Shown here piece after piece: positions 1-23,821 of a DNA stretch of 24,817 bases (position 1 is the first letter of the stretch; each line of letters opens with the position of its first letter). Location of the stretch: IMG/VR virus record IMGVR_UViG_3300023245_000105, positions 1 to 24,817 of that record; one strand, written 5' to 3'. A program made the translations under genes and the position numbers. The notes below the pieces were generated by a model. It was given only the letters and a program-made list of their open reading frames with translations, had not been told where the DNA came from and did no database searches. This stretch comes from a virus.

Positions 1-57
1 TTCGAACCTCCGTAACCAGCTCCAAAAACTGGCGTCCTGCCGCTAGACGATCCGGGA
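1..57 (-). tRNA. tRNA-Gln(UUG), 3' end cut off by the window edge
   Basis: Read on the minus strand, the sequence gives a 5' acceptor strand (TCCCGGA), a D-arm with GTCTAGCGGCAGGAC, and an anticodon stem CCAGT/GCTGG around the 7-nt loop TTTTGGA. It ends in a T-arm beginning GAGGTTCGAA. The anticodon at 23-25 reads TTG, which decodes the glutamine codon CAA. The 3' half of the T-arm and the acceptor lie outside the window, so acceptor pairing cannot be checked. A phage tRNA next to a tmRNA fits a translation-support cluster. Confidence 0.82.
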
Positions 58-2026: not shown

Positions 2027-5000
2027 TTAATCTCTAGGAAGTTTAATCTCAATTGCTGCTATATCACCAGGAAGATTTGACAAAGTTGCATTAATCTGAT
2101 TTAATGTAAGCTGTAATGTTTTAAATAATTCTGCAGTTGAAGGTTCTGCAGTTGTAGAAGGTTCTACAACTGCTTCTTTAGCATTACCAAATCCTAGCGC
2201 TGTCTTAATGCTATCAATTGCTCCTCCACCACCCTGACTATTAAGTGTATCTTTTACATCCTCTATGGCTTCGACCATCGCCTCTAATGCTGCAAGATTC
2301 CTACCGCTTTCAGTCAATGATGCAGATGCTTCAAATAATCCCCTGAATGCTGCAGCTTTATCAATATCTACAGAGTTGATTGCTTCTGCTATTGCTTCAA
2401 AGCCATCTGCAGCTTTCATCAAACTACCATCTGCACCGACTTTAGCAAGAGATGTTACGAACCCAGCAAAGTTATTAACTCTTGTAGAAAATGTTGGCTT
2501 ATCGTAAAATAAAACAAATGTCCCAGACATGCTTTCTAATAGTGTCTTAATAGTTTCGGCGACTTTATCCGGTTTTTTTATGTTAGAAAAAGCTAATAGC
2601 CCATTAGCAATGTTAGTTAGTTCCTCTCCTGCGCCTTTAACTGCAGCTATGCCTTCTTCTACACTATCGTTATCCCATTTGAGACCTAACCAACCTTCAA
2701 CCTTTGCTCCACCTATAGTAGAAAAAGCACCCATAACAAGCCCTAAGGCGGATTCAATTTTCAGAGTAATTCCTCCAGGATCTTTCAAACCTTCAAATGC
2801 AGATAATGATGCAGCTATTTTAGTTAGTTCGTCGCCTGCACCCTTTACACTTCTAATACCTTCTTCTGTTTTAGTTGATTTAATACCAAGCAAAGAACTA
2901 AAAAATCCACCAGATTCAACATCTGTACCATCATCTGCAAGAGCGCCAAAAGCACTCATAACAGTACTAATGACTGTTTTGATTTTAGGAGCTAATAGTT
3001 CAATGTCAATTTTGCTATCTGCTAATTTTTGGAATTCAATCAAGCCTGTTGTTATACCAGTTAAAGCTTTACCTGTATCCATTACACTTCGTATGCCTTC
3101 TTCTACTGCGGTTGATTTAATCCCAAGCAAAGAACTAAAAAACCCACCAGACTCTACAGTTGCACCACCTTCACCAATTGCAGCAAAGGCAGTTCGTATA
3201 AATCCAAGTGTATTAGTAACATTATATGCGAGTGTTCCTGGCTCTGAGCCATCCTCCTTACCGAACTTAACACCACTATTTGCAAAATTATTAAAGTCAA
3301 CTAAACCCTTAGTGATATTTGTAAGTGCTTTGCCTGCACTCATTACAGAATCAATACCACGCTCTGTTGCGTTTGGGCTGAATGTACTACCGAAAATAGC
3401 ACCAAACACGCCGCCTGGGGAAGATGGCTCACCACCGGCATGTGCAAATGCGCTAGTAATTACACCTAATGTTTCTGTTAGTGCTATAGTATTCGTAGGA
3501 GTCCAATTTACTGCCGTAAACGATGTAAGCCCAACCGATAATTTACTAAGTGCCATTCCAGCTGCAGCGAAGCCAGCGGCAGAGGAAATCATCATTGGTC
3601 CCTTCACTGTACTTGATAGCGCACTACCTACGTTTTTAAAGAACCCATCCACACCTGTTGCGTTGCTATCTGTTCCTAAGAATGCTGCTTTAATGCCAGA
3701 TAAGGCTAATGTTAAATTCATAGAATCAGTTGGAGTGAATGCCACCTTTCTAATTGCATCTAAACCTGGTGCTAATAATAGTAGGGCACCACCGATAGTA
3801 GCGAATGCAACCGCACCAGGAATAATGAAAGCTACACCTAAACCAGCAGCAGCAAACTCTAATCCTAACATTAGTAAGATGGCACCTTGGGTAATAACCT
3901 CTGTTTCTCCAATATCTTTAGTAGCTTCCGCAAACGGAGTATATCCTAAACCGAATACGAATAAACCGATACCCATCAACCCTAATGCAAGAGCACCTAA
4001 TCCTATATATGACCAAGCCATACCCAATAATGCTGTTGCCAAACCTAACCCGAGCAATACCCCAACTTGATCAAAGACGGCACCATCCTTAAGGTCAGCA
4101 CTATGTATTGCTAATGCAAATATCGCATAGCCTATACCAAACGAGGCTAAACCAATGCCTAATAATGTTAGAGCTAGCGCGCCTTTCTTAACTTGTTTGC
4201 TTACTAATCCGATAAGAGCTACAGTTCCACTAATAAGTACTAAAGAAGCTACCATTCCAAGTAAAATCTTAGGTTCCATCATAATGAATAGGGTTGTAAG
4301 TGCAAACACAGCAAGTCCAATTCCAAACGATTTAAGTCCATCTCCTACTTTCTCTAAAGCCTTACCACCTTTGCCGATTTGCTTACTTCGGGTTCCAATT
4401 AAGTACATTACGCTTGACATGATGCCAATAGTAACGATCAGGAATGGTATTGCAATTAAGCCTGGAAGGATTAACAATGCTGAAATGGCAAGAGACTTAG
4501 AGAAATTCATGATACTATCACCCATAAGTATGAGGTTTTCAGCACCTTTTTTAATTTTCTTTTGATCGAATTCATCTAGCTTAGTAAATATGTCAACTAT
4601 AAATGATTGAAACTTTATAATTGACTTCTTTGGCACGAATGTAAATACCATAAGTGCCTTTGCCATTTGCATCGCACTTACACCTAGAAGCAATAATGCT
4701 TCCGCGCCAGCCTTCACTCCACCTTTACTTTTTGTTTTACCTTTTTTACTACTAAGTAAACCCTCATCCGTTTCTGTAGTACTTTCTTTTTTTCTATTCA
4801 TATACGCTAATCTAAACATACTTGTAGAAAGCAGTACCATCCTTGACAACTGCTTACCATGATTAGTAAGTTCAATAAGAATTGCACGATTTAATGATTC
4901 TGCTAAACTTGCAGCACCAGTAATTGTAGAAATTAACTGTTTTTGATGAGGCGTATCAACTGGCTTAGTACCAGATGGTTTTGTATTATTACTAGTTAGA

Positions 5001-5098
5001 ATATCGACTAACGCATCTAACTTATTTGCAGTTTCCCGCGTAGACTGTTCAATTTTAGTCAGCGGGTTCATTAGGTCTGCAAGCTGTACTTTAGCCAT
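2027..5098 (-). CDS. Probable tail tape measure protein
   Basis: This 1023-residue protein is predicted to be a long, mostly helical molecule that sets tail length and fills the tube before DNA ejection. Residues about 125-440 are strongly hydrophobic, with many possible membrane-spanning helices separated by K-Q-x-x-K-G-type linkers. Residues about 560-900 contain four diverged repeats built on GGFFSSLLGIKST, EEGIRSV and AGxELTxIAxGL. The N-terminal 130 residues are polar. Position supports the call: it directly follows the gp26/gp51-like pair, as T4 genes 26-51 precede gene 29. At about 1.5 Å per residue the tail would be roughly 150 nm. There is no lytic domain visible. A phage membrane protein is the main alternative. 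Confidence 0.7.
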   Translation of the reverse strand: MAKVQLADLMNPLTKIEQSTRETANKLDALVDILTSNNTKPSGTKPVDTPHQKQLISTITGAASLAESLNRAILIELTNHGKQLSRMVLLSTSMFRLAYMNRKKESTTETDEGLLSSKKGKTKSKGGVKAGAEALLLLGVSAMQMAKALMVFTFVPKKSIIKFQSFIVDIFTKLDEFDQKKIKKGAENLILMGDSIMNFSKSLAISALLILPGLIAIPFLIVTIGIMSSVMYLIGTRSKQIGKGGKALEKVGDGLKSFGIGLAVFALTTLFIMMEPKILLGMVASLVLISGTVALIGLVSKQVKKGALALTLLGIGLASFGIGYAIFALAIHSADLKDGAVFDQVGVLLGLGLATALLGMAWSYIGLGALALGLMGIGLFVFGLGYTPFAEATKDIGETEVITQGAILLMLGLEFAAAGLGVAFIIPGAVAFATIGGALLLLAPGLDAIRKVAFTPTDSMNLTLALSGIKAAFLGTDSNATGVDGFFKNVGSALSSTVKGPMMISSAAGFAAAGMALSKLSVGLTSFTAVNWTPTNTIALTETLGVITSAFAHAGGEPSSPGGVFGAIFGSTFSPNATERGIDSVMSAGKALTNITKGLVDFNNFANSGVKFGKEDGSEPGTLAYNVTNTLGFIRTAFAAIGEGGATVESGGFFSSLLGIKSTAVEEGIRSVMDTGKALTGITTGLIEFQKLADSKIDIELLAPKIKTVISTVMSAFGALADDGTDVESGGFFSSLLGIKSTKTEEGIRSVKGAGDELTKIAASLSAFEGLKDPGGITLKIESALGLVMGAFSTIGGAKVEGWLGLKWDNDSVEEGIAAVKGAGEELTNIANGLLAFSNIKKPDKVAETIKTLLESMSGTFVLFYDKPTFSTRVNNFAGFVTSLAKVGADGSLMKAADGFEAIAEAINSVDIDKAAAFRGLFEASASLTESGRNLAALEAMVEAIEDVKDTLNSQGGGGAIDSIKTALGFGNAKEAVVEPSTTAEPSTAELFKTLQLTLNQINATLSNLPGDIAAIEIKLPRD
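2874..3151 (-). repeat. Near-identical 41-bp direct repeat inside the tape-measure gene
   Basis: The copies at 2874-2914 and 3111-3151 match at 39 of 41 positions. They encode the repeated peptide SGGFFSSLLGIKST. They are the best-conserved part of a set of four longer protein repeats and suggest recent duplication or ongoing homogenisation. Confidence 0.8.
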
Positions 5099-5105
5099 TC
5101 ATCTA

Positions 5106-5315
5106 CTATAATTTTGGAATCTTGATAGAAGGCATCTTAGGCATTTTCATGCCACTCATTCCCTTCATATTGTATTTATCGCGCTCGGCTTCATAAGAAT
5201 CGGCTTCTTGTCCCTTGCGCTCTTTTAATATGTCGTTATAGATAGAAACAATGTATTCAAATTCAAAGTAAGGAAGAGCATCTAGCTCAGATGGCTGAAT
5301 GTGCAATTTTTCCAT
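5106..5315 (-). CDS. Small gp51-like baseplate hub / tail-assembly protein
   Basis: This is a 69-residue protein if it starts at the ATG at 5315, beginning MEKLHIQPSELDALPYFEFE and ending in a Met/Pro/Lys-rich tail (MKMPKMPSIKIPKL). The 'ELDALPYFEFE' core fits the small partners that accompany gp26-like proteins. It starts 16 nt after the gp26-like stop codon and ends 7 nt before the tape-measure start. Its frame is open upstream and overlaps the gp26-like gene by almost 100 bases. It could therefore also be reached by a +1 frameshift at CTT TAA A, giving a gp26-51 fusion like the lambda G/GT chaperones. No Shine-Dalgarno site precedes the ATG. Confidence 0.6.
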   Translation of the reverse strand: MEKLHIQPSELDALPYFEFEYIVSIYNDILKERKGQEADSYEAERDKYNMKGMSGMKMPKMPSIKIPKL

Positions 5316-5330
5316 AAGTATTACTCTGGC

Positions 5331-5340
5331 TTTAAAGAAG
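5331..5340 (-). promoter_or_regulatory. Candidate +1 programmed frameshift site
   Basis: The last codons of the gp26-like gene read CTT CTT TAA, followed by A. A peptidyl-tRNA on the final CTT can slip +1 onto TTT while the stop codon is slowly decoded. The next codon then becomes AAA, and the ribosome enters the open gp51-like frame. The bacterial prfB gene uses the same logic at CTT TGA. No stimulatory element was identified. Confidence 0.35.
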
Positions 5341-6309
5341 TTCAGAATCGATATCGTGAATAACGAACAGACCTTTGATGCCGCCGGGAAATGTAAGTGG
5401 AACGGTGACCTCGGCACCGCAGCTATCACATGGATATATCATTTCAGGCTTTACAGCCACTGTCATTCTTTCAGCTAATCGGTAAGCGATGCTGTATTTA
5501 GTACTCCCCCAACCCTGCAGGTTAGTAATCTGAGAGAAGATTGCTGTACTAGTAAGTCCTCTCCACTCTCGATGCAAATATGGTAGAATAGCTACTAAAG
5601 ACTTATCCCAGTTTGCACCAGATTCTAACTGCTCTCGGCCATACTCACTTACTATTCGCATTACACCGATGGTCGGTGGTGCCATTGTAAAGTTCCCATT
5701 GTTCTTAGTTTGAATAACATAACCTTTACTTTCGTGATCATAATATTTTCCTAGGGTTTCTACTTCTTCATGAAACTGAAGATTTGCTGTTCTTAGTTCG
5801 ATAGATTCTTGGCTTTCACATCCTGCAGTGTCACATCCAGTTTTAACTGGCATCATTAGTTTAAACTCGCCTTCTTTAAATGTTAACTCTCTGATACTAA
5901 GAATAATATAAATACGATCACCCTCAATAATATCTTTATACGATCCTCGCTGTGTACCGAACATCACTCGTGTACATGACGATAGAATATCATTTAACTT
6001 TGAATCTGCGTCATGTATACTTGCTTCATCCATCATTGAGAAATCTCTAATTTCTCCAGTTCTGGCTGGGCGAATATGAATTTCCAAATCATCTCTATAA
6101 AATCTACCACCAGATGGCATTAAGGCCAAATCTAGTTTTAAATATCCAATAAGCTCATTCAGACGCTTAACTTCCGGATCATCTACTGTTGTTCTTTGGG
6201 TTTTGTGAGGTTGTACTTCCCCAAGATCTACAACCTTGCTAGAAGTTTCGAGTATTCCCTCAGATTCTTCAAATTCTTTTTTAACATTTTCTTCGTGATC
6301 TGTATTCAT
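5332..6309 (-). CDS. gp26-like baseplate hub / tail-assembly protein
   Basis: This encodes 325 residues. After a polar N-terminus (1-55), the stretch LALMPSGGRFY...IHIRPARTGEIRDFSMMDE...LNDILSSCT resembles T4 gp26-type proteins, where a short 'LPS.G' strand is followed by a helical domain ending near a conserved Cys-Thr. Two cysteine pairs, C159/C164 and C294/C297, probably form one zinc site across the chain. It precedes the gp51-like gene and the tape measure, the order expected for the proteins that build the baseplate hub and load the tape measure. It is larger than T4 gp26 (about 208 residues). The start at 6309 lies 2 nt after the endonuclease stop. Assignment rests on pattern and position, not on a search. 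Confidence 0.6.
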   Translation of the reverse strand: MNTDHEENVKKEFEESEGILETSSKVVDLGEVQPHKTQRTTVDDPEVKRLNELIGYLKLDLALMPSGGRFYRDDLEIHIRPARTGEIRDFSMMDEASIHDADSKLNDILSSCTRVMFGTQRGSYKDIIEGDRIYIILSIRELTFKEGEFKLMMPVKTGCDTAGCESQESIELRTANLQFHEEVETLGKYYDHESKGYVIQTKNNGNFTMAPPTIGVMRIVSEYGREQLESGANWDKSLVAILPYLHREWRGLTSTAIFSQITNLQGWGSTKYSIAYRLAERMTVAVKPEMIYPCDSCGAEVTVPLTFPGGIKGLFVIHDIDSELL

Positions 6310-11993: not shown

Positions 11994-13871
11994 CTAAACT
12001 AAATCATAAATATCATAATTAAGATTTTCATCTCTTAAGTCCCGCTCTAAGATATTTTCTATTTCTGCCTGGACTGCTTCATCGATAAAGTCATAAAGCT
12101 CTTCGACATACTCTGTGAAATCCACAGTATTTAAGAATTCAGAAGCATTAACTGCAGTCATAACTAAATCATCATTTCCGTTTTGTCCAGAATATCTGCC
12201 ATTTGCCATCTTCCCAAAGGTAGATGATTCTTTTACAGTATCTTTGTCATTAAGTATAATTCTATTTTGTGCTACACCTTTCTTAAAATTTTGACAGAAG
12301 ATTGGCTTATTATCACTTTTAACTTTAAGGCCATAAGATGAGGTCCTAGCATCAATACGATGTTTGAATTTTGTTACAGATTCCTCATCAAAGTCATTAC
12401 GCTGTGGGAAAACCGTTTCAAGTCTTTTCATTAATTCAGATCCAAATACATTCCACTCAATTAAGAGTTTTACATTCTCCTGGTTAAATACATCGCATAT
12501 TAATACATATAAAACCTTTGCAAAGTCGTCTATACTATGTTCATTGCTTCTGAATCTTCCAACTTGATAAAGCCCAAAGAAGTCTACCATACTACCTGGA
12601 GAAATTACTTTCTTCAAGTCCTTTAGTGCCATGCTATTTACTTGGAAGATATTAATGACAGAGTAATCTCCACCATTACCCTCGGCAATATCAATAGAAA
12701 ATAGCCAGTACTTACTATCTTCTCCGGCTTCATCTTCAATACTGAAATTAGGATGCCATTTTAAATCTGAGTATATTAGAGATTCATCATCAAGTTCTGG
12801 GATGTCTCTATGTACATATTCTATTTGGTTCTGTTGTAATCGCTTTAAGCTATCTGGGCTTAATAATAATGATGAGCTTGAGATGAACTGATTTCCATAC
12901 TGTCTGTTGAAAGCTTCTTCACTTCCAAGATTTTGAATTTCAGCCTCCATCCATTCATCATCTCTACCAGGAACATCCCACCAGTCTATTCTAAATGGTT
13001 TATATTCACTTAGGCCTTTCTCGGCTGCGGTGTATATTTCATAAAACTTATTGAACCCCCATGGAGTACTCGTTATAATTACTTTTGAATTCTTGGATGC
13101 TGATACCGTGGGATAAACGTTTTCATAGAAGACGTCAATAAATTGATGTGGAATATGAGCAAACTCATCCATGAATAATAAGTGAATCGTAAATCCAATC
13201 GCTGCCTTTTTAGTGGTTGTCTGACCGATAATTCTGCAGCCATTGTCAAACTTTGAATTAAATACATCGTATTTTAGAACTCCAGGCTTCATAAAGAACG
13301 GTAGATTCTCAAGTATAGTTTTACCCTTATCTAATATTTCTGTGGTAGTTGCACCTTTGTTCGATAAGATTAGTGCATTCTTATCAAAGTTAAATAATAT
13401 GTACCACGCTATAAAGATCGAGGAACAAATCGTGTTCGATGATAATATACCATTAGAATAAAAGCGATGATTATCATGATCAACCGTAACATCAAACATA
13501 CTTACTTTATGCAATGAGGTTTCAATGTTTGATATTCTACTTAATCCGTTGATAGTCTGTATTAAATCTCCAAGTTTTAAATCTTCTACAAAAACAATAT
13601 TGAAATTTATGTCAAAGACCTTATGCTTATCAGCACACTCTAAGGATAAACCATCATCTGTATCTATCTTCCATATTGTATATGGCTGAGTAATATGTAC
13701 ATGTGATAATGGCTCCCATCCAGTATCAGTCCAAACATTAATATTGTTTAATTCAATAGAGTTTAGTATTTTCTTTGAGACGTCATCTTGGTCAAGATCT
13801 ATATTACGATACTCTATAACTTCAATGAAACTTATTAATAGAAGAATGATATGTTTGAGAGTTTTAATCAT
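11994..13871 (-). CDS. Large terminase, C-terminal half with C-intein
   Basis: Of the 625 residues, 1-146 are a C-terminal split intein ending GILSSN, and 147-625 are the rest of the TerL ATPase and nuclease, starting TICSSIFIAWY. The extein shows the Walker B region LLFMDEFAH, the coupling motif TSTP, and the RNase H-like nuclease beginning WLFSIDIAEGNGGD. After trans-splicing with the N-half at GK|T, the 605-residue product nearly equals T4 gp17 (610). TerL pumps DNA into the prohead and cuts concatemers. Residues 1-33 are an unusual hydrophobic extension (LKHIILLLISFIEVIEY) before the intein fold. The start overlaps the N-half stop by 8 nt (ATGATTAA), which should couple their translation. 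Confidence 0.92.
   Translation of the reverse strand: MIKTLKHIILLLISFIEVIEYRNIDLDQDDVSKKILNSIELNNINVWTDTGWEPLSHVHITQPYTIWKIDTDDGLSLECADKHKVFDINFNIVFVEDLKLGDLIQTINGLSRISNIETSLHKVSMFDVTVDHDNHRFYSNGILSSNTICSSIFIAWYILFNFDKNALILSNKGATTTEILDKGKTILENLPFFMKPGVLKYDVFNSKFDNGCRIIGQTTTKKAAIGFTIHLLFMDEFAHIPHQFIDVFYENVYPTVSASKNSKVIITSTPWGFNKFYEIYTAAEKGLSEYKPFRIDWWDVPGRDDEWMEAEIQNLGSEEAFNRQYGNQFISSSSLLLSPDSLKRLQQNQIEYVHRDIPELDDESLIYSDLKWHPNFSIEDEAGEDSKYWLFSIDIAEGNGGDYSVINIFQVNSMALKDLKKVISPGSMVDFFGLYQVGRFRSNEHSIDDFAKVLYVLICDVFNQENVKLLIEWNVFGSELMKRLETVFPQRNDFDEESVTKFKHRIDARTSSYGLKVKSDNKPIFCQNFKKGVAQNRIILNDKDTVKESSTFGKMANGRYSGQNGNDDLVMTAVNASEFLNTVDFTEYVEELYDFIDEAVQAEIENILERDLRDENLNYDIYDLV
13434..13871 (-). other. 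TerL C-intein (146 residues)
   Basis: Recognisable parts are NVWTDTGWEP, YTIWKIDTDDGLSLECADKH (block B, with Ala where TxxH normally has Thr), DLKLGDLI, and DNHRFYSNGILSSN (blocks F and G). The final Asn is followed by Thr as the +1 nucleophile. The residue before the Asn is Ser, where most inteins have His. The break falls between blocks A and B, as in the AceL-TerL class of atypical split inteins. Confidence 0.85.
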
Positions 13872-13932
13872 TTAAAAACTTGATACATTTTTTTAATGTT
13901 TGTTTTGGATCTTTGTTCCAATCTAATTCCCA
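13864..13932 (-). pseudogene. Remnant of a homing endonuclease fused to the N-intein
   Basis: WELDWN and TLKKCIKFLN in the tail align without gaps to WEHEWN and ALEKCMNFLN at the end of the clamp-loader-associated endonuclease, with 11 of 21 positions identical and the stop codon at nearly the same place. The DNA also matches around the stop (AAGTTTTTAAATGATTAA versus AACTTTTTAAACTAA). The upstream boundary of the remnant is uncertain. Confidence 0.65.
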
Positions 13933-14460
13933 TTCATACAGCTTCCACAGAGAATATTTTGTTCTTTCTAAAAATGTAAGCTTTCGGTGAAGTTTTAATG
14001 ACTCAAAATAAAGTCTACCAAGTGTTGTTTTAATGGCGGTGCCATCTCTTAAAATTAGAACTTCAGTTGAATGTAAAAAACATTTCCCAACTTGCCGGCT
14101 GGCTAGGCAAACAGAAAACCGTTCTGCCGCAAACTGCCTCAGCATCTTCTCTTGGTAATCTCGAAGTTCTATCGTCATAAGACCGTTATCGGTCATTACA
14201 GTACAATAGTTATTAGCAAAATAAATTATGTCTTTTGCACATTTTTTAATTTCTGAAATCTCCATCTGGGTATATTCAAAAACAATGTTGCCTTTGCGCA
14301 AGTTTGGATTGCTGTCGTGAAATGGTGTAGACTTACTCTTGTACCCATCATCAATAGCAATCATAAGCTGCTCTACCTTTTTGGAGGTCCAAATATTGGA
14401 TTCTTGTTGCTTACTAACCTTTAGTTCAAATCCTGCCGGTTCTGCTTGTGGTTTAGCCAT
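13864..14460 (-). CDS. Large terminase, N-terminal half with N-intein
   Basis: Residues 1-126 are the N-extein. They contain the TerL lead-in (FANNYCTVMT...IELRDYQEKMLRQF) and the start of Walker A, ASRQVGK, which stops one residue before its Thr. Cys127 begins a class-1 N-intein block A (CFLHSTEVLILRDGTAIKTT). Residues 177-198 do not belong to an intein: WELDWNKDPKQTLKKCIKFL plus ND resembles the C-terminus of the homing endonuclease at 21539-22666. The product must associate with the downstream half and splice to make an active packaging motor. Start is the ATG at 14460; no Shine-Dalgarno site. The GroES-like gene ends 39 nt upstream. Confidence 0.9.
   Translation of the reverse strand: MAKPQAEPAGFELKVSKQQESNIWTSKKVEQLMIAIDDGYKSKSTPFHDSNPNLRKGNIVFEYTQMEISEIKKCAKDIIYFANNYCTVMTDNGLMTIELRDYQEKMLRQFAAERFSVCLASRQVGKCFLHSTEVLILRDGTAIKTTLGRLYFESLKLHRKLTFLERTKYSLWKLYEWELDWNKDPKQTLKKCIKFLND
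13867..14082 (-). other. TerL N-intein plus fused tail (72 residues)
   Basis: The N-intein starts with the catalytic Cys immediately after GK of Walker A. About 25-31 residues (to LGRLYFESL) are enough for block A, judged against the clamp-loader N-intein (30 residues). The remaining 40 or so are a tail with no intein block in it. Confidence 0.8.
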
Positions 14461-20368: not shown

Positions 20369-21532
20369 TCATCCTTCCTTTATTATAGTTTGCAAGGTGT
20401 AAATACACGCCAACATAGATATAACAGGGTCAATGACCTGTAGGCGTTGTGATTGGTATTTAGATACTGTAACAACTATCTGAGGAATTAATGGAATGGA
20501 CGATTGTCTTTCCTTCTTTATGAAGTCAATAAATTCCCCACCTAAAGATGATAGAATGTCATCACATCGGTTGGAATAGTTCGATACCATATACTCATAG
20601 CTTTTTACTGGGTCAGTCCCATCAATGACAAGATCATACACATCAGAGAATAGTGAACTGAACTTCTTAATATCTTCAACTGTTATAAGTTCTTTACCTT
20701 CTGACTTAAAGCCTTGAAGTGTATTTAGCATGTTACGAAGATCTGGGAATTTTCGTTTCACTAATTCTACTGCTGCGTATTTTTCTATTGTTATATCCTC
20801 AGCTTTACAAATTTCAAGTATTCTAACAATATAGCCTTTCATAATCTCAGTCTCCTCATCTTTACCAAAATCGAAGTCGATCATTTCAAATCTTGACTTA
20901 ATTGGATCAGGAACCTTATTGATGTAATTACACGTTGCTACGAATCTTGCATTCTTTGAGAACATATCCATAGTTGCTCGGAGTGCTTTGAAAAATTGGT
21001 CAGATACTCCGTCTATCTCATCTAATATAATTACTTTCATTTTTCCTGGCTTGTCCATAATACTTCGGTTAGCACAAAAGTCAGTAATTCTGTTTCTTAC
21101 TACATCAACACTAGTGTCAGTTGAAGCGTTGATGTACATATATGGATGTTCGAAGTGTTTCACTAGAGCCTTTGCGGCAGAAGTATTATGTGATAATATG
21201 CTGTCTGTATAATACCTATGATTTGTACCAGCAGGTAGCTCTAAATCATACATTTCCTCAGAAGTACCGTCCTTATAGATATCTTTAATGATAGATCTAC
21301 CTTCGCTTACCACTATGCAATCACCAACGTTCAAATTCTTTATGAAAATTTCATTGTAATTTTCATCAAACAAAATGTGATTATCTGCACCGCTTAGTTT
21401 AAGCCCATCTTCAGTAGTAATAGTCCATACTTCGTATGGTATAGTCTTATGCGAAGTTGCTATATCTTCCCAGCCGCTATCTGATAGTACTTGATAATCA
21501 TTAATTTTTTTACTCTCTATAAATTTTTTCAT
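20369..21532 (-). CDS. Clamp-loader large subunit, C-terminal half with C-intein
   Basis: Residues 1-116 are the C-intein and 117-387 the C-extein, beginning TSAAKALVKHFEHPYMYINAS. The extein shows Walker B (KVIILDEIDG), sensor 1 (FVATCNYINKVPDPIKSRFE, which includes the SRF arginine-finger motif) and the lid and collar of the AAA+ clamp loader. Joined to the 49-residue N-extein it gives 320 residues, almost exactly the size of T4 gp44 (319). Four gp44 and one gp62 open the sliding clamp using ATP. The unspliced half lacks the P-loop lysine and cannot bind ATP properly, so splicing is needed for function. It starts 6 nt after the endonuclease stop codon. Confidence 0.92.
   Translation of the reverse strand: MKKFIESKKINDYQVLSDSGWEDIATSHKTIPYEVWTITTEDGLKLSGADNHILFDENYNEIFIKNLNVGDCIVVSEGRSIIKDIYKDGTSEEMYDLELPAGTNHRYYTDSILSHNTSAAKALVKHFEHPYMYINASTDTSVDVVRNRITDFCANRSIMDKPGKMKVIILDEIDGVSDQFFKALRATMDMFSKNARFVATCNYINKVPDPIKSRFEMIDFDFGKDEETEIMKGYIVRILEICKAEDITIEKYAAVELVKRKFPDLRNMLNTLQGFKSEGKELITVEDIKKFSSLFSDVYDLVIDGTDPVKSYEYMVSNYSNRCDDILSSLGGEFIDFIKKERQSSIPLIPQIVVTVSKYQSQRLQVIDPVISMLACIYTLQTIIKEG
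21185..21532 (-). other. Clamp-loader C-intein (116 residues)
   Basis: Visible elements are QVLSDSGWED, YEVWTITTEDGLKLSGADNH (block B, Ala replacing the usual Thr), NLNVGDCIVV, MYDLELPAGTNHRYYTDSIL (block F) and SHN before the +1 Thr (block G). It aligns along its full length with the TerL C-intein, so the two share ancestry. Confidence 0.88.
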
Positions 21533-21538
21533 ATTATT

Positions 21539-22666
21539 TTAGTTTAAAAAGTTCATGCATTTCTCTAATGCTTCTGTTTTTGAGTCATTCCATTCGTGTT
21601 CCCATATTACAAGGACCTCATAACCTTTATCGTTAGCCAATTTAGCTTTTCTTTTGTCGTAATCCCATACTTCAGTTGCAGTTTTACCGCCTCTAATAAT
21701 GTCAGTTTCATTATACATGGTAGGATTACAGTGCCAATAATCTCCATTAAATTCTATGATCTTTCTCTTTTCTTTATGAGTAAAATCATAAGAACATTTA
21801 ATATCTCCTCCATTTATCCACCTTTCTTTTTTAGGAATGTCCATTTGCAATTCATTACAAATAGATTCTATCATGGAAGAAGCAAACTGACTTGACGGTG
21901 AACGTCCATCTCCATAGTTTTCAAAATTCTTTTGTAATGCGATTTTCCATTTTCTTTGCCGTTCTTCAAAAATTTTAGTACCTTCTACTTCACCGTGTTG
22001 TTTGATGCATTTCTCTAAAGTGAAAGTAGCTTGTCTTTCTTTTACTAATGCTTTAGCCTCAGTTTCAGTGTGTCCTAATTTCATCCAGTATTTAAACTGC
22101 GTAGTACTCATGGCATCATATTTTTCTGGATTTGCTTTACGTTTATCTGCAAATGCTTTACCTGCTTTGCTTTGGTGCTTCTTCACAGCAGCTGTGGCTT
22201 CATCTATAGAATGACCTCGCTTCAACCAAAAATCAACATTATTTGGCAGAAGTCGCATATTATAAATCTCCTCCTCTGAGAACCCACGTGCTAGTAGATT
22301 TTCTTTCGTCCCTTTAAAATGGTTTTTGACTTGTTTTGCAATACCAGATTGGACAATGGACATTTGCTTATACCCATCTTCTTCAGAATAACCTCGCTTC
22401 AACCAATAATGAATTGAATTTGGTCTGTTATACTTAAAGTTTAACTTCATAGCTGCGATATAGCTTTCAACTAATGCGGGTGGTAAAAACGCATTAAATC
22501 TATCTATGCGTTTAACTTCAGGTTTATTAGTAACACAATTATCATTAATACAGTCGATAATAGTATTTCTACTATATCCTCTCTTTATCTGGAGTTCGGC
22601 CTTACATAAGTTACACTTGGGTGTAATGTCTGAAGTAAATGTCTTTGCTTTGTAAAAGTATTTCAT
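21539..22666 (-). CDS. Vsr-like (EDxHD-type) homing endonuclease between split-intein halves
   Basis: The 375-residue protein has three parts. Residues 18-44 carry a C-x2-C...C-x4-C putative zinc site. Residues about 87-204 hold four copies of a YWLKRGxSEEEA-type module (87, 124, 146, 193), probably DNA-binding. Residues about 265-375 form a Vsr-like nuclease with SYDF, KIIEFNGDYWHCNP, VWDYDKRKAKLA and VLVIWEHEW. This matches the endonuclease family described with fractured split-intein genes and the phage enzyme I-Bth0305I. It would cut clamp-loader alleles lacking the insertion and so spread itself. A late-type promoter abuts its ATG. The neighbouring halves must splice in trans because of it. 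Confidence 0.85.
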   Translation of the reverse strand: MKYFYKAKTFTSDITPKCNLCKAELQIKRGYSRNTIIDCINDNCVTNKPEVKRIDRFNAFLPPALVESYIAAMKLNFKYNRPNSIHYWLKRGYSEEDGYKQMSIVQSGIAKQVKNHFKGTKENLLARGFSEEEIYNMRLLPNNVDFWLKRGHSIDEATAAVKKHQSKAGKAFADKRKANPEKYDAMSTTQFKYWMKLGHTETEAKALVKERQATFTLEKCIKQHGEVEGTKIFEERQRKWKIALQKNFENYGDGRSPSSQFASSMIESICNELQMDIPKKERWINGGDIKCSYDFTHKEKRKIIEFNGDYWHCNPTMYNETDIIRGGKTATEVWDYDKRKAKLANDKGYEVLVIWEHEWNDSKTEALEKCMNFLN

Positions 22667-22673
22667 ATGTTTT

Positions 22674-22686
22674 GTTTTATATATTC
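22674..22686 (-). promoter_or_regulatory. Late-type promoter of the homing endonuclease
   Basis: The minus strand reads GAATATATAAAAC, two mismatches from the late box. T4 spacing puts the start near 22668, two bases before the ATG, so the message would be nearly leaderless. It lets the endonuclease, and possibly the C-half, be transcribed separately from the N-half. Confidence 0.5.
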
Positions 22687-22724
22687 AAAACTTCTAATGT
22701 TTTATGGGAAGCCGGGATATTGGC

Positions 22725-22964
22725 CTAAAGCATAGTATGAAAATCCCTAATAGACATTGTTTCAATCTTACCTGTGATTTTGTTTTTTACTTCTATTAGA
22801 CTATCGCCAATGACACATTTCCCTGTTCCTGGACTTCCATGGAGCAATAGATGCTGATATACACCCTGCTCAAGTTTAGCTCTTACTCTTTTTGGAGTAA
22901 CGAGATCATTTATATTTTGTGGGCGGTATTTTTCTGTTAGTAATAAGTTTTCTATGTTCTTCAT
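22725..22964 (-). CDS. Clamp-loader large subunit, N-terminal half with N-intein
   Basis: From the ATG at 22964 the 79-residue product has 49 residues of N-extein: the AAA+ lead-in LLLTEKYRPQNINDLVTP (compare T4 gp44 EQKYRPSTIDE) and Walker A HGSPGTGK, cut off before its Thr. Residues 50-79 are the N-intein, starting CVIGDSLIEVKNKITGKIET and ending at a stop. I prefer this ATG to the upstream TTG at 22982 because it begins where the gp44 family begins. The stop is 58 nt before the endonuclease start. Product and C-half must meet and splice in trans. Confidence 0.9.
   Translation of the reverse strand: MKNIENLLLTEKYRPQNINDLVTPKRVRAKLEQGVYQHLLLHGSPGTGKCVIGDSLIEVKNKITGKIETMSIRDFHTML
22728..22817 (-). 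other. Clamp-loader N-intein (30 residues)
   Basis: It begins with the nucleophile Cys directly after GTGK and contains block A only. Block B lies in the other half, 1.2 kb away. Thirty residues is far shorter than usual split N-inteins (about 90-120) but close to AceL-TerL (25). Confidence 0.85.
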
Positions 22965-23035: not shown

Positions 23036-23821
23036 ATGATACCTAATAGAAAGCATAATAAGCTCAAGATACTTCCAACGACTTCTGTTAAATCCAGAGT
23101 TGAACGTTCTACGAAAATATTCAGGAGAGTACCCATTACTCAAAATAAGCACGTGCCAACGATAGAACCTAAGAAAGGTTTATCATTTCCTAAACGTAAC
23201 CCACAAATTCCAGTTACTTCAGTGAAACGAATCTGGAACGGTGAAACGGTGTTCGTAATCGGTGGAGGCCCATCACTTAAAACTGCAGAATGGAATAAGT
23301 TAGCTGGGAAAAAGACCATTGCAATAAATAAATCATTCATTACCTATCCTAATGCTGATGTATTATATTGGACGGATAGCAGATTCTATTCTTGGTACAC
23401 AGAGAAAGTGAACGAATTCAAAGGATTGAAGTACACTATAAGACATAGCAATAATTATACTGGAGATATTAATTTACTAACGCGTGGAAGAAGATATGGA
23501 CTAGAAACTAGGACTGATACATTAGCACATGGTAATAATAGTGGGTATGCTGCTATCAATTTAGCATATCATTTAGGTGCCAAGAAAATAGTTTTACTTG
23601 GATATGATATGGGAATAGTAAAGGGTGAAAGTCATTACCATGATGGCTATCCAATTAAGGCTACTTCACATGACATTTATGAAAAGCAATTTATTCCTGG
23701 GTTTCAACAATTAGCTGATGATCTAAAGAAGGAAAAAATTGAAGTTTGGAATGCTTGCCCAACGAGTAACTTATTCGCCTTTCCAAAAATTAGTCTACAG
23801 CGTGGGCTAAGTTTTACTTGA
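23036..23821 (+). CDS. DUF115 / MptE-like Rossmann protein
   Basis: This is the only plus-strand gene in the window. Residues 70-200 carry the family hallmarks: ETVFVIGGGPSLK (70-82), KTIAINKSF, ADVLYWTDSRFYSWY and KKIVLLGYDMG (183-193). Related proteins include archaeal 6-hydroxymethylpterin diphosphokinase MptE and bacterial proteins in cell-surface glycan modification; phage members may alter sugars or nucleotides, but the substrate is unknown. Start choice is open. The ATG at 23036 would be nearly leaderless behind a GATAAATA box at 23022-23029. An ATT at 23135 has AGGAG seven bases upstream and gives a 228-residue protein without the basic N-terminal 33 residues. It ends overlapping the convergent next gene by 15 nt. 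Confidence 0.8.
   Translation: MIPNRKHNKLKILPTTSVKSRVERSTKIFRRVPITQNKHVPTIEPKKGLSFPKRNPQIPVTSVKRIWNGETVFVIGGGPSLKTAEWNKLAGKKTIAINKSFITYPNADVLYWTDSRFYSWYTEKVNEFKGLKYTIRHSNNYTGDINLLTRGRRYGLETRTDTLAHGNNSGYAAINLAYHLGAKKIVLLGYDMGIVKGESHYHDGYPIKATSHDIYEKQFIPGFQQLADDLKKEKIEVWNACPTSNLFAFPKISLQRGLSFT
23123..23137 (+). promoter_or_regulatory. Shine-Dalgarno site placed for an ATT start
   Basis: AGGAG at 23123-23127 stands seven bases before ATT at 23135, in frame with the DUF115-like protein. Strong Shine-Dalgarno sites are rare in this window, so this one may mark the real start. There is no ATG, GTG or TTG at that spacing. Confidence 0.35.

What the first reader, a model, noticed from the sequence alone, without database searches (positions are those of the whole stretch)
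20369..22964. Fractured clamp-loader gene: split intein halves flank a free-standing endonuclease
The gp44-like ATPase is cut inside Walker A, with a 30-residue N-intein, a separately promoted 375-residue Vsr-like endonuclease, then a 116-residue C-intein. This matches the fractured-gene arrangement first reported from metagenomic data. The split lies between blocks A and B, like the atypical AceL-TerL inteins. Exteins sum to 320 residues against 319 in T4 gp44.
Basis: partly seen in the sequence, partly recalled or inferred. Interest (0 to 1): 0.88.

Follow-up and report, generated by a model that had tools for sequence, protein, structure and literature searches.

The report
Clamp-loader gene split by mobile intein
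In this uncultured phage, the gene for an essential replication ATPase is broken in two inside its ATP-binding loop, with a DNA-cutting gene between the pieces; the two protein halves carry intein fragments that should join them after translation, and the same kind of element breaks many other phage ATPase genes, including a second one in this same stretch of DNA.

Summary
gp44, the clamp-loader ATPase, is cut at Walker A (GSPGTGK^TSAAK) into a 79-aa N-half (49 extein + 30 N-intein), a 375-aa Vsr-like endonuclease ORF and a 387-aa C-half (116 C-intein + 271 extein). The exteins sum to 320 aa; 71 of 76 intein-free relatives are exactly 320 aa. The C-intein is a genuine intein (profile hits to gp41-1, VidaL and Cat structures, E 2e-12 to 2.5e-9). 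Three phage lineages share this fracture. The gp44 endonuclease is a mosaic: its recognition half matches another gp44 endonuclease, while part of its core is 88% identical in DNA to a TerL endonuclease. The elements belong to a phage family of short-N split inteins at GK^T/S in gp44, TerL, ClpB-like, DnaB-like and SbcC-like ATPases. Most likely it is a mobile split intein plus homing endonuclease, with gp44 made by protein trans-splicing. It is a new variant of the known 'fractured gene' kind. Splicing and cleavage are inferred, not shown.

The parts
22725..22964 (-). N-half gene of fractured gp44 (79 aa + stop)
   Evidence: ORF; phrog_168 clamp loader, E 1.4e-9
22818..22964 (-). N-extein (49 aa), ends ...GSPGTGK inside Walker A
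   Evidence: 75 of 76 intein-free relatives read through as LLHGSPGTGK^TSAAK
22728..22817 (-). N-intein, 30 aa, starts Cys1 (block A)
   Evidence: Aligned with 17 other N-inteins; 55-59% identical to L004 and L088; a contiguous relative (L093) whose first part is the same type matches TIGR01445 intein_Nterm from residue 1
22676..22683 (-). TATATAAA, late-promoter-like motif 17 nt upstream of the endonuclease start
   Evidence: 12 of 29 endonucleases of this kind have it within 60 nt upstream, 0.9 expected, max 4 in 300 shuffles; same motif before the tail-sheath gene 11429-8193
21539..22666 (-). Free-standing Vsr-like (EDxHD-type) homing endonuclease, 375 aa
   Evidence: Conserved S259, E281, D294, E305, G308, H312; NCBIfam vsr 1.3e-4; PDB Vsr and 3r3p are top profile hits
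22535..22615 (-). Zinc-ribbon-like Cys cluster (residues 18-44) of the endonuclease, part of the target-specific N-terminal module
   Evidence: Cys positions in alignment A3; N-terminal part best matches the other gp44 endonuclease, L088
21723..22090 (-). Recombinant core tract, 88% DNA identity over 376 nt to the TerL-associated endonuclease of L084
   Evidence: blastn and sliding codon identity
21542..21901 (-). C-terminal nuclease domain (residues 256-375)
   Evidence: Alignment A6
20369..21532 (-). C-half gene of fractured gp44 (387 aa + stop)
   Evidence: ORF; phrog_168 E 3.9e-52
21185..21532 (-). C-intein, 116 aa, blocks B (GADNH), F and G (LSHN)
   Evidence: Family profile hits PDB 6qaz gp41-1 2e-12, 6vgv VidaL 4.2e-12, 6dsl CatC 2.5e-9
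20372..21184 (-). C-extein, 271 aa, starts Thr+1
   Evidence: 49 + 271 = 320 aa, equal to 71 of 76 intein-free gp44 ORFs
13864..14460 (-). Second fractured gene: TerL N-half (198 aa); extein ends ASRQVGK, N-intein starts at 14082; last 21 aa (13867-13929) are the in-frame tail of a deleted endonuclease
   Evidence: tail identical to the L084 endonuclease C-terminus
11994..13871 (-). TerL C-half (625 aa), C-intein 13871-13434 ending LSSN, extein starts TICSSIF
   Evidence: Terminase_6N 1.4e-11; C-intein 40% identical to that of gp44

Best explanation
This is a mobile split-intein element sitting in the Walker A codons of gp44. Step 1 (anatomy shown, reaction inferred): the N-half (GK|Cys1...) and C-half (...His-Asn|Thr+1) are translated separately. 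The 30-aa N-intein docks into the 116-aa C-intein, and standard class-1 chemistry (Cys1 acyl shift, transesterification to Thr+1, Asn cyclisation) yields an unscarred 320-aa gp44 with its P-loop restored. Without splicing Walker A stays broken, so an essential replication factor protects the element from loss. Step 2 (inferred): the ORF between the halves is a Vsr/EDxHD-type homing endonuclease. A zinc-ribbon plus repeat N-terminal module recognises the intein-less gp44 P-loop DNA; the C-terminal domain cuts it, and repair from the fractured copy inserts N-intein, endonuclease and C-intein. Step 3 (motif support only): the endonuclease and the tightly linked C-half also have a late-type promoter, as T4 intron endonucleases do. 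Step 4 (shown by comparison): the elements lie in a family whose inteins sort by target gene, whose endonuclease recognition modules follow the target, and whose nuclease cores are exchanged between target classes. Loss of the endonuclease leaves a bare split intein, as in L004 gp44 and the window's TerL.
For: Exact reading frames and junctions. Intein homology: PDB gp41-1, VidaL, CatC. Junction chemistry across 75 non-redundant relatives: last residue Asn in 75, penultimate His in 74, +1 Thr/Ser in 75. Extein sum equals the length of intein-free gp44. Three gp44 lineages share the fracture, two with intact endonuclease and one with a 43-aa remnant. Split parts are under constraint: pS 0.60-0.69, pN 0.23-0.29, no internal stops. 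The three fractured gp44s lie scattered among intein-free ones in the gp44 tree while their inteins form one clade (SH-aLRT 87), as expected of a mobile element. Endonuclease N-part identity is 0.44 for same-target and 0.18 for different-target pairs. DNA mosaic with the TerL endonuclease. Promoter motif enrichment. No second gp44 in a 90.9 kb relative. No Rfam intron in the window. T4 precedent for late-promoter endonucleases inside earlier genes: PMC2988022.
Against: No splicing or cleavage has been measured. The 30-aa N-intein is too short to be recognised alone. DNA around the insertion site is not especially conserved between the window and intein-free relatives (0.76 against a gene mean of 0.735), so the target site is only a presumption. 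dS is near saturation, so the constraint estimate is rough. All genomes are fragments, so a second gp44 cannot be fully excluded. The gp44 tree is poorly resolved.
Confidence: 0.87

Rival explanations
1. The two halves work as a non-covalent two-subunit ATPase without splicing, as the phage Aeh1 NrdA halves split by mobE do; the intein pieces are degenerate leftovers.
For: Precedent for functional split phage proteins without splicing (NrdA, gp43) in PMC2988022.
Against: All intein catalytic positions are kept in three diverged gp44 lineages and throughout the family; pS far exceeds pN in both intein pieces. The break separates the Walker A Lys from its Thr, where unspliced halves would carry 30 and 116 extra residues at the active site (inference).
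Confidence: 0.06
2. The fractured gp44 is a decayed copy, and an intact gp44 or host clamp loader does the work.
For: The genome is incomplete; the TerL element in the same window has lost its endonuclease and has an unusual penultimate Ser.
Against: Exteins are about 80% identical to intein-free relatives with pN 0.13-0.17 and no stops; no other gp44 in the window or in a 90.9 kb relative with the same fracture.
Confidence: 0.05
3. The endonuclease is not a homing enzyme for this site but a free-standing nuclease that happens to sit in a pre-existing split gene, acting for example against competing phages elsewhere in their genomes.
For: Endonuclease-free split copies exist (L004 gp44, window TerL), so the split can persist alone; intron endonucleases can act in phage competition (PMC11620839, abstract seen).
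Against: The endonuclease recognition part tracks the interrupted gene across gp44, TerL, DnaB and ClpB, and 31 of 75 loci have such an ORF exactly between the halves. Homing and competition are compatible.
Confidence: 0.12
4. Assembly or sequencing artefact.
For: Metagenomic contig.
Against: Same structure in three samples and in two diverged lineages.
Confidence: 0.01

Closest known systems
'Fractured genes' with split inteins and a new endonuclease family (Dassa et al. 2009, NAR 37:2560; gp41-1, gp41-8, NrdJ-1 and others)
   Same: Host gene in two pieces with intein halves at the break and a free-standing EDxHD/Vsr-type endonuclease between them; the C-intein profile's best PDB hit is gp41-1.
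   Different: Those inteins are split at the canonical endonuclease site with long N-parts (my knowledge; the paper is not held). Here the split comes after 30 residues, at Walker A of gp44.
Atypical natural split inteins AceL-TerL, GOS-TerL (and consensus Cat)
   [quoted passage not shown] 30/116 here; CatC is a significant profile hit.
   Different: They have Cys+1 (PMC11766414); here Thr+1 at GK^T. Whether their loci hold an endonuclease between the halves could not be checked.
I-Bth0305I and Vsr endonucleases (EDxHD family)
   Same: Top PDB hits of the nuclease-domain profile are Vsr and 3r3p, with the Asp and His columns aligned to Vsr PDF and FWH.
   Different: Only weak sequence similarity; these endonucleases lie in split inteins and have zinc-ribbon and W-K-x-G repeat modules. 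A related EDxHD/Vsr outgroup is described in phage group II introns (PMC12350094).
Canonical split-intein fracture of gp44 in huge phage LR756500.1
   Same: Same gene, two halves, 443-aa ORF between.
   Different: Different site (Walker B, ILDE^CDGA), canonical split (about 100-aa N-intein, 38-aa C-intein), different endonuclease: an independent fracture.

Membership tests
Intein (HINT splicing domain) | Homology to known inteins over the splicing blocks | tested here: met
   C-intein profile: 6qaz 2e-12, 6vgv 4.2e-12, 6dsl 2.5e-9; single-sequence Pfam Intein_splicing is below its cut-off
Intein (HINT splicing domain) | Nucleophile at residue 1, C-terminal (His)Asn, Cys/Ser/Thr at +1 | tested here: met
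   Cys1, His115-Asn116, Thr+1 in all three gp44 cases
Intein (HINT splicing domain) | Protein splicing activity | not testable with these tools
   Needs co-expression of the halves
Fractured gene (Dassa 2009) | Host gene in two ORFs with split-intein halves at the break | tested here: met
Fractured gene (Dassa 2009) | Free-standing endonuclease ORF between the halves | tested here: met
   375-aa ORF; 31 of 75 relatives have one
[quoted passage not shown]
   N-intein is 30 aa and block B lies in the C-half
[quoted passage not shown]
   30/116 aa; definition from PMC13014065
Atypical split intein (AceL/GOS-TerL type) | Cys+1 as in AceL-TerL and GOS-TerL | tested here: not met
   Thr+1; in the family 64 Thr and 11 Ser of 75
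EDxHD/Vsr homing endonuclease | Homology to the Vsr/I-Bth0305I nuclease domain | tested here: inconclusive
EDxHD/Vsr homing endonuclease | Conserved acidic and His catalytic residues | tested here: met
   D294 and H312 in 29 of 29, E305 28, E281 27; second Asp (D337) in only 19
EDxHD/Vsr homing endonuclease | Site-specific cleavage of the intein-less allele and homing | not testable with these tools
   Needs cleavage and cross assays
T4-type gp44 clamp loader | AAA+ ATPase of about 319-320 aa with gp44 lid | tested here: met
   phrog_168, Gp44_lid, 320-aa spliced length

The most novel reading that the evidence does not exclude
The window shows one member of an unrecognised phage-wide family of P-loop hunting elements: short-N split inteins inserted at Walker A (GK^T/S) of many unrelated ATPases (gp44, TerL, both AAA modules of ClpB-like proteins, DnaB-like helicases, SbcC-like proteins). 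Their endonucleases are modular, with a recognition half fixed to the target gene and a nuclease core passed between target classes, which would let the element move from one ATPase gene to another in the same phage. Some ClpB-like genes are fractured twice, so the protein would need two orthogonal trans-splicing reactions among three polypeptides.
Probability: 0.5. Interest if true: 0.78.

Novelty: new variant of a known kind. Interest (0 to 1): 0.66.

Why it matters
It joins two things found apart in the accessible literature: the fractured-gene arrangement with its endonuclease, and the short-N atypical split intein. It gives a natural series of states (intein-free, fractured with endonuclease, fractured with remnant, bare split, contiguous intein) across one set of related phages, so the origin and loss of split inteins can be followed directly. 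The modular endonucleases make a concrete, testable model of how a homing element changes its target gene. The 30-aa N-inteins with Cys1 and Thr/Ser+1 are a large new pool for protein labelling, and two split inteins in one phage raise the question of how cross-splicing between a replication ATPase and a packaging ATPase is avoided.

Tried and rejected
The full-length endonuclease profile found nothing in the PDB; only the nuclease domain alone gave weak Vsr and 3r3p hits. The N-intein profile alone finds no intein in the PDB; it is too short. I expected the DNA at the insertion site to be unusually conserved; it is not. The T4 late consensus TATAAATA is not enriched over the window as a whole, and no sigma-70 promoter excess was seen; the related TATATAAA was enriched before endonucleases. 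The gap between N-half and endonuclease has no significant RNA structure in the window (z -1.4), though some relatives have hairpins. No Rfam intron. Bacillus phage 0305phi8-36, source of I-Bth0305I, is not held under the accession tried. Dassa 2009 could not be read. Searches for a gp44 or clamp-loader split intein found none in the papers held, which is not proof of absence.
Full report
What is there. On the minus strand, 22964-22725 encodes a 79-residue protein, 22666-21539 a 375-residue protein and 21532-20369 a 387-residue protein. The first and last are the two parts of a T4-type gp44 clamp loader: the same PHROG (phrog_168) matches the N-half over profile positions 8-63 and the C-half over 56-312, and the gp44 lid is present. 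The break lies between the Walker A Lys and Thr (GSPGTGK^TSAAK). The N-half carries 30 extra residues starting with Cys, and the C-half begins with 116 extra residues ending in His-Asn. Removing them gives 49 + 271 = 320 residues. Of 76 intein-free gp44 ORFs fetched from IMG/VR, 71 are exactly 320 aa, and 75 read LLHGSPGTGK^TSAAK without interruption.

It is an intein. A profile of 45 related C-inteins finds solved inteins: cyanophage-like gp41-1 (6qaz, 2e-12), VidaL (6vgv, 4.2e-12) and the atypical consensus intein CatC (6dsl, 2.5e-9). Block B (ADNH), block F and block G (LSHN) are all in the C-half, so the split is between blocks A and B. A contiguous relative in a ClpB-like gene (L093), with the same kind of start, matches the intein N-terminal splicing region from its first residue (TIGR01445).

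The ORF between the halves. Its C-terminal 120 residues match Vsr (NCBIfam 1.3e-4). As a family profile its best PDB hits are Vsr endonucleases (0.017), then the I-Bth0305I catalytic domain 3r3p (0.053); the conserved Asp294 and His312 columns align to the Vsr PDF and FWH motifs. S259, D294, G308 and H312 are invariant in 29 relatives; E281 and E305 nearly so. Seventeen nucleotides before its start is TATATAAA. Twelve of 29 such endonucleases have this motif within 60 nt upstream, against 0.9 in shuffles, and it stands before the tail-sheath gene of this window too. The endonuclease stop and the C-half start are 6 nt apart, so the C-half is probably co-translated with it (inference). In T4, endonuclease genes inside earlier genes have late promoters (PMC2988022).

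Not an artefact. Two other samples hold the same locus with 1-5 SNPs (L002, L003). L004 is a diverged phage (N-intein 55%, C-intein 64%, exteins 81-82%) in which the endonuclease has shrunk to a 43-residue tail. L088, on a 90.9 kb contig, has the same fracture with a 372-residue endonuclease, and that contig has no other gp44. Between these lineages pS is 0.60-0.69 and pN 0.23-0.29 in the intein parts, with no stops; dS is near saturation, so this is only a sign of constraint. On a gp44 tree the three fractured genes are scattered among intein-free ones, while their inteins form one clade. That fits horizontal movement, although the gp44 tree is weakly resolved.

A second fractured gene in the window. 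TerL is cut at Walker A as well (ASRQVGK^TICSS): N-half 14460-13864, C-half 13871-11994. In a relative (L084) the two TerL halves flank a 359-residue endonuclease. In the window that ORF has been deleted, and its last 21 residues, identical to those of L084, are fused in frame to the N-intein. This C-intein ends in LSSN, the only one of 75 without the penultimate His. The gp44 and TerL C-inteins of this one phage are 40% identical.

Mosaic endonuclease. The gp44 endonuclease and the TerL endonuclease of L084 have no significant DNA similarity outside one tract, but are 88% identical over a 376-nt tract covering roughly residues 193-315, with runs of identical codons. The N-terminal part of the gp44 endonuclease is closest to the other gp44 endonuclease, and its C-terminal part is closest to the TerL one. 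Over 29 endonucleases, N-part identity averages 0.44 for the same target and 0.18 for different targets; for the C-part it is 0.47 and 0.35. Several others also pair a recognition part of one target class with a nuclease part of another (L122, L130, L144, L149). Part of this could reflect relatedness of the phages; the DNA tract is harder to explain that way.

The family. The C-intein finds 201 loci in IMG/VR, of which 80 were kept. In 75 non-redundant cases, apart from one second TerL site (L123), the inteins sit at a Walker A GK^T/S where the junction could be read: 36 TerL, 20 ClpB-like D2, 7 ClpB-like D1, 4 DnaB-like, 3 gp44, 2 small AAA, 2 SbcC-like (the SbcC label rests on sequence recall and a weak SMC_N hit). 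The N-junctions were found with a pattern that demands GK and Cys or Ser, so those counts are partly by construction; the +1 residue, penultimate His and final Asn were not. Tally: 31 split with an endonuclease between, 25 split without an intact one, 8 contiguous, 11 unresolved. Inteins cluster by target gene (11 changes on the tree, 35 when shuffled). In three phages a ClpB-like gene is fractured at both Walker A motifs, giving a middle polypeptide with a C-intein in front and an N-intein behind (L095, L101, L119). Contiguous versions occur in TerL of cultured Ackermannviridae.

How it most likely works. Protein trans-splicing restores gp44 (anatomy shown, reaction inferred, about 0.9). The endonuclease cuts intein-less gp44 and the element is copied in (inferred, about 0.75). 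It is expressed late from its own promoter (motif support only, about 0.6). Endonuclease loss leaves a bare split intein (shown by comparison in L004 and in the window's TerL; that it still splices is inferred).

Against the known. It works like a fractured gene in the sense of Dassa 2009 and like an atypical split intein of the AceL/GOS-TerL type. It fails one usual feature of each: the split is not canonical, and the +1 residue is Thr, not Cys (PMC11766414). The papers that could be searched contain no gp44 or clamp-loader split intein, but the original papers are not held. I therefore call it a new variant of a known kind.

Noticed in passing
11994-14460 (-): TerL is also a fractured gene at Walker A; its endonuclease was deleted cleanly and the last 21 residues fused in frame to the N-intein.
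   Followed up: yes
13434-13439 (-): The TerL C-intein ends LSSN: the only one of 75 relatives without the penultimate His. Whether it still splices, and how fast, is open.
   Followed up: partly
L095, L101, L119: ClpB-like genes fractured at both AAA modules: three polypeptides, the middle one flanked by a C-intein and an N-intein. C-inteins of the two sites in one phage are 55-68% identical, so cross-splicing is a risk.
   Followed up: partly
L175 (LR756500.1) 2900-5645: In a 462 kb huge phage gp44 is fractured independently at Walker B (ILDE^CDGA) by a canonical split intein with a 443-aa ORF between the halves. The record carries no annotation.
   Followed up: partly
L123 4003-6705: A TerL gene with two contiguous inteins, one at Walker A and one further downstream.
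   Followed up: no
L160 record (G013, 306 kb): Nine C-intein-like matches in one phage record, some with stops inside; possibly many decaying elements.
   Followed up: no
L084 8494-9228: A free-standing ORF that looks like a GIY-YIG endonuclease between TerL and the tail sheath, a position held by an unrelated 100-aa ORF in the window.
   Followed up: no
23036-23821 (+): A gene on the opposite strand next to the gp44 N-half matches MptE-like (Pfam) and a PHROG named alpha-2,3-sialyltransferase; possibly a glycan-modifying enzyme.
   Followed up: no
1-57 (-): A truncated tRNA-like match at the contig end (Rfam RF00005, 30.1 bits).
   Followed up: no
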